Of a stretch of 64,000 nucleotides of DNA, positions 9,068 to 9,518 are shown in pieces. The notes beneath the pieces are model-generated. The model saw only the letters and a program-made list of their open reading frames with translations. It ran no database searches and was not told the DNA's origin. Both the position numbers and the translations under genes were made by a program. The number at the start of each line of letters is the position of its first letter. The stretch's first letter is position 1. Source of the DNA: Glycine soja (lineage: Eukaryota; Streptophyta; Magnoliopsida; Fabales; Fabaceae); NCBI RefSeq assembly GCF_004193775.1, contig NC_041019.1, positions 40,134,966 to 40,198,965 on the forward strand, in the 5' to 3' direction.

Positions 9068-9518
9068 AAAAAGAATTCGCCAAGGACTAACCGCCTGAAT
9101 TCTTTTTGTGTCTCTCTTCTCCCTTTTCCAAAAGAACAAAGGACTAACCGCCCGAATTCTTTTGTGTCTCCTTTCTCCCTTGTCAAAGAATTCAAAACGA
9201 CACAGTCTGATAATTCTTTTGATTCTTCTCATTCCCTAATACAAAAGTGTTCAAAGGACTAACCGCCTGAGAATTCTTTTGTATCCCCATTCACAAAGTA
9301 TCAAAGGTTTAACAGCCTGAGATCTTTGTCTTAATACATTGGAGGGTACATCCTTTGTGGTACAAGTGGATGGTACATCTACTTGGGTTTGACTGAGAAC
9401 AAGAGAGGGTACATCTCTTGTGGATCAGTTCTAGTGGAGGGTACATCCACTAGGTTCAAAGAGAACAAGGGAGGGTACATCCCTTGTGGATCTTTGCTTG
9501 TAAAAGAATTTTTACAAG
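9068..9518 (+). repeat. Run of stem-loops with two conserved loop classes (solo LTR)
   Basis: Class I (loop core AAGGACTAACCGCCTGA or a variant): stems 9068-9078/9097-9107, 9129-9136/9157-9164, 9183-9192/9212-9222 (one bulge), 9239-9247/9276-9284 and 9293-9302/9321-9329 (one bulge). Class II (7-nt loop GGGTACA, or TGGTACA in the second): 9336-9343/9351-9358 (6 of 8 pairs), 9363-9370/9378-9385 (7 of 8), 9399-9406/9414-9421, 9431-9438/9446-9453 and 9465-9472/9480-9487, the last three perfect. A final hairpin CTTGTAAAA/TTTTACAAG lies at 9497-9518. Stem sequences differ between units while pairing is kept. Downstream of the TATA position, so probably transcribed as R/U5 leader RNA. Confidence 0.85.

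What the first reader, a model, noticed from the sequence alone, without database searches (positions are those of the whole stretch)
9336..9487. Five stem-loops with a fixed GGGTACA loop and changing, still-paired stems
In the copia LTR family five consecutive units share the 7-nt loop GGGTACA, yet the 8-bp stems differ: roughly ACAAAGGA, CAAGTAGA, ACAAGAGA, CTAGTGGA and ACAAGGGA, each facing its own complement. Three of the five are perfect here, others nearly so, and the second becomes perfect in the left LTR at 55412-55434. Different stems around one loop mean pairing, not primary sequence, has been kept, the usual sign of selection on RNA or cruciform structure. The run lies downstream of the LTR TATA box, so it would be in the leader RNA and could serve dimerisation, packaging, translation control or protein binding. 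I know of no description of such an array.
Basis: partly seen in the sequence, partly recalled or inferred. Interest (0 to 1): 0.86.

Follow-up and report, generated by a model that had tools for sequence, protein, structure and literature searches.

The report
Five-hairpin array in soybean retrotransposon leader
A jumping element present in thousands of copies in a soybean-sized genome carries a row of five small RNA hairpins in its probable messenger leader, and where one side of a stem changed in evolution the other side changed to match, so the folded shape itself appears to be kept, for a reason not yet known.

Summary
The array is real, with corrections. In LTR A four of five loops read GGGTACA (unit 2: TGGTACA), and unit 1 is ACATTGGA/TCCTTTGT with two U·U mismatches. 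The window lies in an unnamed 1.01-Gb genome, evidently soybean. Of 93 LTR copies examined (90 taken in list order by a motif outside the array, plus the window's three), 82 have five units.

Covariation exists but is narrow. In unit 4 one base pair flips U-A to A-U: genome-wide exact 23-mers number 2,865 and 1,606, against 61 half-changed. With a tree-aware null, any of 60 designated pairs reaches this in 8 of 1000 replicates; over all column pairs it is not significant. A hairpin of a second, upstream array shows another flip (43 and 22; 2 mismatched; 26 of 93 not scored). A related family has one homologous hairpin with other loop and outer stem.

The element looks like a Sirevirus. Best reading: a tandemly multiplied leader hairpin kept by selection, perhaps for RNA dimerisation or packaging (function inferred). 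Main rival: hairpin-templated mutation without selection. My paper searches listed no description of such an array.

The parts
8175..9809 (+). LTR A, a solo LTR (TG...CA) that holds the reported array
   Evidence: Starts TGTAGAAGC, ends CCAACA; 5-bp target duplication GTTAA at 8170-8174 and 9810-9814; no primer-binding site behind it
54200..55859 (+). LTR B, followed by primer-binding site TGGTATCAGAGC at 55862
58499..60177 (+). LTR C, 3' LTR of the element that begins with B
8885..8892 (+). TATA box 1 (TATCAAAG in LTR A; TATAAAAG at 54918-54925 and 59237-59244)
   Evidence: Sequence; role inferred
9067..9329 (+). Array I: larger hairpins, five repeat units with loop resembling AAAGGACTAACCGCCTGA
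   Evidence: folds z -4.06 and -3.03, in which hairpins 1, 4 and 5 form as such and units 2 and 3 pair with each other; hairpin at 9293-9329 covaries among copies
9336..9358 (+). Array II unit 1: ACATTGGA-GGGTACA-TCCTTTGT, two U·U mismatches
9363..9385 (+). Array II unit 2: CAAGTGGA-TGGTACA-TCTACTTG here; CAAGTAGA/TCTACTTG in most copies
9391..9430 (+). Array II unit 3 with outer stem ACTGA/TCAGT (plus one G·U); inner ACAAGAGA-GGGTACA-TCTCTTGT at 9399-9421
9431..9453 (+). Array II unit 4: CTAGTGGA-GGGTACA-TCCACTAG; the covarying unit
9457..9496 (+). Array II unit 5 with outer stem CAAAGA/TCTTTG; inner ACAAGGGA-GGGTACA-TCCCTTGT at 9465-9487
9497..9518 (+). Downstream hairpin H6: CTTGTAAAA/TTTTACAAG
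   Evidence: length forms
9531..9555 (+). Downstream hairpin H7: CTCAAGG.../...CTTGGGG
   Evidence: the stretch 9490-9700 as a whole does not fold better than shuffles (z +0.80)
9559..9586 (+). Conserved motif GGATGTAGGCACGGGTTGTTGCCGAACC, holding ATG-TAG
   Evidence: 1,910 exact copies in the genome
9589..9596 (+). Second TATA-like box (TATAAAAA)
   Evidence: A[GA]TATAAA directly after the motif in 88 of 93 copies; TATAAA in 15 and TATATAA in 1 of 16 copies of the related family; not in three loci with other motif forms, L110, L112, L129; role inferred
55385..55536 (+). Array II in LTR B
59705..59856 (+). Array II in LTR C
58474..58558 (+). Inverted repeat around the polypurine tract and LTR edge
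   Evidence: 15-nt arms, 93% complementary

Best explanation
The array is part of a structured RNA leader in an abundant, apparently Sirevirus-like Copia element. One ancestral leader hairpin, still single in a related soybean family, was multiplied in tandem to five, and the copies then diverged while their pairing was kept (shown: presence, pairing, two-sided change, homologous hairpin in the relative; inferred: amplification from one, its direction, selection). Most likely it works in the element's genomic RNA as a multivalent handle: five near-identical 7-nt loops, each with the self-complementary GUAC flanked by two 5' purines and one 3' purine, offered on stems whose letters matter less than their pairing, recognised by the element's own Gag or by the same loops on a second RNA in dimerisation and packaging. 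This function step is inference; no experiment or database result bears on it directly.
For: Five units in 82 of 93 copies, 4 in 6, 3 in 4, 1 in 1 (90 copies chosen by a motif outside the array). Of the 82, all 8 pairs form in 73, 67, 67 and 67 copies for units 2, 3, 4 and 5. Unit 4 pair 2: U-A 51, A-U 25, 2 unpaired, 2 gapped in 80 distinct aligned rows; genome-wide exact 23-mers 2,865, 1,606, 27, 34 for TA, AT, TT, AA; rank 1 of 11,943 column pairs; 8 of 1000 tree-aware null replicates for 60 designated pairs, 5 with both states paired. The A-U form of unit 4 keeps its own pair 6 (G-C in 25 of 26, where unit 2 has A-U in 80 of 82), and units 2 and 4 have identical stems in 0 of 82 copies, so it is not simply unit 2 copied in. 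Array I hairpin: A..T 43, T..A 22, T..T 2. H6: four A with five T in 40 of 93, three A with four T in 20. Related family: hairpin CTGAACACAAGGGA...TCCCTGTGTGGTTCAG or close forms in 16 of 16 copies that I selected, z -0.4 to -3.2. Arrays diverge less between the window's LTRs (array II 0.024-0.037) than U3 does for A against B or C (0.066-0.082). Leader ATG 2.4 per copy against 6.9 expected in 43 scorable copies, while CAT is 11.6 against 8.6. Kissing loops are proposed to start dimerisation of Ty1 RNA, a Copia-superfamily element (PMC5454406, passages), and flanking purines matter in HIV-1 (PMC5874298, passages).
Against: Only one array II stem pair covaries among orthologous units; without designating pairs the same null is not significant (56 of 60 replicates). 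The flank tree forces only 2 changes on supported branches, and the protein tree gave 1 supported independent pair. The loop is not conserved in the related family (mostly TGGGTTG or AGGGTTG), and 6 of 93 copies have GCGTACA in one or more of units 1, 2 and 4, so the GUAC idea is family-specific at best; GUAC itself is kept in 75 to 78 of 82 copies per unit, which shows no special constraint in decaying copies. Unit 1 forms at most 6 of 8 pairs in 80 of 82 copies. A second TATA-like box downstream may give transcripts without the array. Between LTRs B and C alone array II (0.037) is not more conserved than U3 (0.003 and 0.031). ATG is only the fourth most depleted trinucleotide of the leader.
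Confidence: 0.42

Rival explanations
1. Mutation without selection: in hairpin DNA or during reverse transcription one arm serves as template for the other, so a change in one arm is copied into its partner, and unit turnover (duplication, conversion) multiplies perfect hairpins.
For: The window has a 66-bp dimer repeat; unit number varies from 1 to 5 and fusion units occur (for example L042, L072, L085, L108); loops of units 1, 2 and 4 read GCG together in L038, L101 and L102 (L101 and L102 look alike and may be one event), as expected of conversion.
Against: A single conversion tract from unit 2 would also bring its pair 6, which unit 4 lacks. Inserted copies show ordinary one-sided decay. 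The hairpin also persists in a related family with other letters, and ATG depletion suggests that the leader is functional. None of this excludes templated repair as such.
Confidence: 0.2
2. Pool sorting as in barley BARE: transcripts from the upstream TATA box carry both arrays and are the packaged form; transcripts from the downstream TATA-like box lack them and are translated.
For: Arrays I and II lie between the two boxes; the downstream box is kept in 88 of 93 copies and, as TATAAA or TATATAA, in 16 of 16 copies of the related family. BARE: TATA1 transcripts are packaged and TATA2 transcripts are on polyribosomes (PMC3735527, passages).
Against: ATG depletion over the array region is better explained if that RNA is scanned by ribosomes. 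No transcript ends known. AGTATAAA may be part of the U5 motif and not a promoter.
Confidence: 0.15
3. Translation control: the hairpins slow or guide scanning, or promote shunting, towards gag.
For: Leader of about 960 nt in LTR B from the inferred start to the first ATG behind the primer-binding site (a further ATG spans the LTR edge at 55859 in B); ATG depleted; the U5 motif holds a start-stop ATG-TAG.
Against: Scanning control does not need a constant loop or five units; hairpins of -7 to -18 kcal/mol are each weak.
Confidence: 0.12
4. DNA-level role: repeated 11-bp protein-binding sites or cruciforms in the LTR, comparable with palindromic motif clusters of Sirevirus LTRs.
For: The 11-bp core GAGGGTACATC recurs; Sirevirus LTRs carry palindromic repeats, and such regions in maize attract small RNAs (PMC2829016, passages and section 9; PMC10760457, passages).
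Against: A binding site would keep letters and would not need two-sided changes in the outer stem; the motifs of PMC2829016 lie upstream of the TATA box and are near-identical palindromes, whereas the array is downstream of TATA box 1.
Confidence: 0.1
5. No structure kept: a tandem repeat of a chance palindrome, with subfamily differences only.
For: Unrestricted tree-aware null not significant.
Against: Own-arm pairing best of 120 in each LTR, the 2,865/1,606/61 table, and hairpins in array I, H6 and the related family.
Confidence: 0.01

Closest known systems
Ty1 leader kissing loops SL1a/SL3a (PMC5454406, passages read)
   Same: Copia superfamily; stem-loops in the leader with complementary loop letters, proposed to start dimerisation
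   Different: Ty1 uses two different hairpins with 7-nt complementarity; here five near-identical loops with only a 4-nt self-complement, untested
Retroviral dimerisation hairpins (PMC5874298, passages read)
   Same: Self-complementary loop core with flanking purines on a leader stem-loop; [quoted passage not shown]
   Different: The passages tell of separate hairpins, 6-, 10- or 16-nt palindromes among them; they do not tell of a tandem array of one multiplied unit
Sirevirus palindromic repeat motifs in LTRs (PMC2829016, section 9 and passages read)
   Same: Repeated palindromic units in LTRs of the same kind of element; this LTR also has such repeats (GTAATCGATTAC) upstream of the TATA box
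   Different: Those are near-identical palindromes, mostly in the upper half of the LTR; the present array is downstream of TATA box 1, with near-constant loop and varying stems
BARE two-promoter LTR (PMC3735527, passages read)
   Same: LTR with two TATA boxes; a parasitic relative is said to keep dimerisation and packaging signals
   Different: No such hairpin array in the passages read; start sites here are unknown
Multiple degenerate packaging signals proposed for satellite tobacco necrosis virus (PMC6475782, abstract read)
   Same: Several short degenerate signals in one RNA proposed for packaging (that they are stem-loops with a shared loop motif is recalled)
   Different: Different kind of virus; that paper reports no discernible significance of those signals for selective packaging in vivo

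Membership tests
Sirevirus (Copia superfamily) | Several identical polypurine tracts before the 3' LTR | tested here: met
   AAAGGGGGAGA with its GGGGGAG core at 58325, 58404 and 58490, within 200 bp
Sirevirus (Copia superfamily) | Inverted repeat bordering the polypurine tract and ending inside the 3' LTR | tested here: met
   15-nt arms 58474-58488 and 58544-58558, 93% complementary; right arm about 45 bp inside the LTR against a mean of 28 in PMC2829016, whose Sirevirus arms average 28 bp; that paper finds shorter ones (mean 19 bp) in other Copia elements too
Sirevirus (Copia superfamily) | Palindromic repeat motif upstream of the TATA box | tested here: inconclusive
   GTAATCGATTAC 4, 5 and 7 intact copies in LTRs A, B and C; resembles Tnd-1 ACAATCGATTGT, but the other Sireviruses that have the motif show a CGG-CCG core and at least eight copies
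Sirevirus (Copia superfamily) | Reverse-transcriptase phylogeny | not tested
   The element between LTRs B and C keeps only protease-like and RNase H-like shreds (names recalled, no family search made)
Kissing-loop dimerisation hairpin | Self-complementary loop core with flanking purines | tested here: met
   GGGUACA by sequence; GUAC kept in 75 to 78 of 82 copies per unit; lost in unit 2 of LTR C and absent in the related family
Kissing-loop dimerisation hairpin | Drives RNA dimers | not testable with these tools
   Needs RNA in vitro
BARE-type two-promoter LTR | Two active TATA boxes with separate RNA pools | not testable with these tools
   Two TATA-like boxes flank the arrays; no transcript data
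Curated RNA families (Rfam 15) | Match above a family's gathering score | tested here: not met
   Window 54000-60400 (LTRs B and C; LTR A not searched): six weak matches, all below gathering score, none in an array

The most novel reading that the evidence does not exclude
The five loops are a multivalent dimerisation and packaging code present only on the upstream-promoter RNA, so that hairpin number marks genomic RNA apart from translated RNA. The loops of units 1, 2 and 4 changed together in a subfamily (GCGUACA), which could set up self-recognition between subfamilies.
Probability: 0.12. Interest if true: 0.82.

Novelty: new variant of a known kind. Interest (0 to 1): 0.6.

Why it matters
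From my reading, cis-acting RNA structures of plant LTR retrotransposons are little known, although such elements make up much of plant genomes. An array in thousands of copies, with natural two-sided variants and a relative that has a single hairpin, offers a ready-made evolutionary experiment on how retroelement leaders gain and keep RNA structure, and a concrete target for RNA probing.

Tried and rejected
Pattern scans of viral and bacterial collections found no plant relatives: two scans with 0 hits, one viral stretch and 17 bacterial or archaeal stretches, of which none shows the array. A consensus fold of 93 copies over both arrays was spoiled by misaligned rows and is not used. The protein-level tree could not count independent events. 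Unit 4's flip as a simple copy of unit 2 was rejected because pair 6 differs (the translated copies point the same way, G-C in 43 of 48, but some reading frames could not show the other form of unit 4, so the DNA count is the one used). Complementarity of unit cores (TACATCC or TACATCT) to the U5 motif (GGATGTA), 7-8 pairs counting G·U for all five units, was considered as a long-range switch; I made no control for it, judge it close to what chance allows, and did not pursue it. Rows dropped before counts: of 93 copies, 11 without five units and 1 with a broken unit 4 were left out of the alignment (81 rows, 80 distinct), and 2 more without T or A at both sites out of the tree (79); 26 of 93 not scored for the array I hairpin and 19 of 93 without a match for H6; 50 of 93 not scored for ATG. 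H6 forms: four A with five T 40, four A with six T 1, three A with four T 20, three A with five T 11, five A with five T 2, no match 19. Of the 30 loci with other U5 forms, 4 are this family (L111, L117, L118, L120), 8 carry other motif forms without the core (L110, L112, L126-L130, L137), and I picked 16 of the remaining 18 as the related family; L114 and L123 look like it but are broken or shortened and were left out. Translated copies: 123 hits, 120 listed, then 29 and 97, 235 distinct proteins in all; 112 of the first 120 scored for unit 4. All 90 genome copies come from one contig, C1. In one search the TATA string was found only in LTR C; in A and B the start was set from the hand-chosen edge of the stretch. 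Its U3 controls: ATG not depleted (P 0.844, 0.494, 0.792), but CAT low in A and C (P 0.016, 0.02).

Full report
WHAT IS THERE. The window holds three LTRs of one Copia family: a solo LTR at 8175-9809 with the target duplication GTTAA on both sides, and a pair at 54200-55859 and 58499-60177 around a 2.6-kb internal region that keeps only shreds of pol. The reported array lies at 9336-9487 and equivalently in the other two LTRs. Units 3, 4 and 5 are perfect in LTR A, unit 2 is perfect in LTR B, and unit 1 has two U·U mismatches in all three. Units 3 and 5 have second, outer stems with different letters (ACTGA/TCAGT and CAAAGA/TCTTTG) around the same small internal loop. Just upstream lies another array of larger hairpins, and just downstream two more hairpins and a conserved U5 motif, although the downstream stretch as a whole does not fold better than shuffles (z +0.80). 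The U3 stretch 8560-8830 also folds strongly (z -4.74), as its palindromes would make it, so a low fold energy alone is not special to the leader.

CHANCE. The loop heptamer is over-represented (19 against 4.0); the array folds better than all 200 shuffles in two LTRs; each set of 5' arms matches its own 3' arms better than under any other assignment. Among units, three of five covariation measures exceed all 500 shuffles and the slid versions; two (number of pairs with two-sided change, number of pair types) do not exceed the shuffles.

MORE COPIES. The window's genome (1.01 Gb, 1119 contigs; the window is on contig C18) contains the U5 motif exactly 1,910 times. Its size, and close translated copies annotated from Glycine soja, point to soybean; the genome itself is unnamed. 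I took the first 90 listed copies, all on contig C1, without regard to the array. With the window's three, 82 of 93 have five units, 6 four, 4 three, 1 one. In the 82, all 8 pairs form in 73 (unit 2), 67 (unit 3), 67 (unit 4) and 67 (unit 5); unit 1 forms at most 6 in 80.

COVARIATION. In array II, units 2, 3 and 5 hardly vary between copies. Unit 4 has two forms, CTAGTGGA/TCCACTAG and CAAGTGGA/TCCACTTG. In 80 distinct aligned rows the pair is U-A 51, A-U 25, 2 unpaired, 2 gapped. Genome-wide, exact 23-mers number 2,865 (T..A), 1,606 (A..T), 27 (T..T) and 34 (A..A): 4,471 of 4,532 paired. The same flip shows in 112 translated copies scored before any further DNA was at hand: L..R 62, Q..W 41, Q..R 2, L..W 0, other 7. 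The A-U form is not unit 2 copied whole: its pair 6 is G-C in 25 of 26 copies where unit 2 has A-U in 80 of 82. A tree from flanking sequence needs 4 changes, 2 forced by supported branches. Moving substitutions among columns along that tree, any of 60 designated stem pairs reaches the observed value in 8 of 1000 replicates, 5 with both states paired; among all column pairs something as strong occurs in 56 of 60, although the observed pair ranks first of 11,943. So the covariation is significant for the named structure and not for a blind search, and in array II it rests on one pair. A hairpin of array I adds a second flip: A..T 43, T..A 22, T..T 2, 26 not scored; the joint table with unit 4 (36, 10 and 8 in three combinations, none in the fourth among copies scored for both) places it at a different point of the family's history. 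The downstream hairpin H6 occurs mainly as four A with five T (40 of 93) or three A with four T (20); 14 others fit neither and 19 gave no match. Single copies with private two-sided changes exist (L066 unit 1, L031 unit 2), too few to weigh.

A RELATIVE WITH ONE HAIRPIN. A search for a U5 motif of other length gave 235 places. Of 30 fetched, 16 that I selected as one family carry a single hairpin in the place of unit 5, CTGAACACAAGGGA...TCCCTGTGTGGTTCAG or close forms, z from -0.4 to -3.2, followed by counterparts of H6 and H7 with other letters, and no GNGTACATC core within 420 bp upstream. Its loop is mostly TGGGTTG or AGGGTTG. This suggests, without proving the direction, that the array arose by tandem amplification of one leader hairpin.

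WHERE IT IS IN THE RNA. TATA box 1 lies about 450-470 bp upstream of unit 1. Between the start inferred from it and the end of the stretch held, ATG occurs 2.4 times per copy against 6.9 expected, while CAT is 11.6 against 8.6 (43 scorable copies of 93; single LTRs, P 0.004, 0.046 and 0.05); three other trinucleotides, CGT, GCG and GGC, are more depleted than ATG. Apart from the ATG inside the U5 motif, which all 93 share (90 were chosen by that motif), no ATG position recurs in more than 5 copies (counted without alignment). In the motif the ATG is followed at once by TAG. This fits a scanned leader. A second TATA-like box follows the motif in 88 of 93 copies and in 16 of 16 copies of the relative, so a two-promoter arrangement as in BARE (PMC3735527, passages) is open.

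MECHANISM. Shown: hairpins by prediction, pairing, two-sided change, leader position by sequence signs. Inferred: selection, and the function. The loop GGGUACA has GUAC, self-complementary, with two purines before and one after, an arrangement like that of lentiviral dimerisation loops (flanking purines: passages of PMC5874298; the exact 2-plus-1 pattern is recalled). Ty1 offers a Copia precedent of leader kissing loops (PMC5454406, passages). Against it: the loop differs in the relative, GCGTACA loops occur in 6 of 93 copies, and GUAC is kept in 75 to 78 of 82 copies per unit, no sign of special constraint. Neutral hairpin-templated mutation remains the main rival.

LITERATURE. Searches listed no paper that describes such an array; titles, abstract starts and the passages named were seen, not whole texts, and long hit lists were seen only in part. 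The most relevant earlier work, palindromic structures in maize Sirevirus LTRs (Bousios 2016), is not held and is known here through PMC10760457 (passages).

One search recounted the unit tables; loop, H6, distance and ATG statements were mended from it and.

Noticed in passing
9067-9329; 55117-55378; 59436-59698: Second hairpin array with larger loop (like AAAGGACTAACCGCCTGA) and varying stems; its last hairpin shows a two-sided A-T/T-A switch among copies
   Followed up: partly
9559-9586: The U5 motif holds an ATG directly followed by TAG (a start-stop) in a leader otherwise poor in ATG; the related family mostly has ACG-TAG there
   Followed up: partly
9344-9479 against 9559-9568: All five unit cores (TACATCC or TACATCT) can pair over 7-8 bases, G·U counted, with the U5 motif (GGATGTA); no control made
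   Followed up: partly
L038, L101, L102: Loops of units 1, 2 and 4 all read GCGTACA while unit 3 and 5 loops do not: a concerted loop change
   Followed up: no
54152-54196: 45 bp of the internal 3' end with polypurine tract precede LTR B as well as LTR C, so LTR B sits behind a remnant of another copy
   Followed up: partly
54529-54765; 58828-59106: Repeated palindrome GTAATCGATTAC upstream of the TATA box, 5 and 7 intact copies, like a Sirevirus repeat motif
   Followed up: partly
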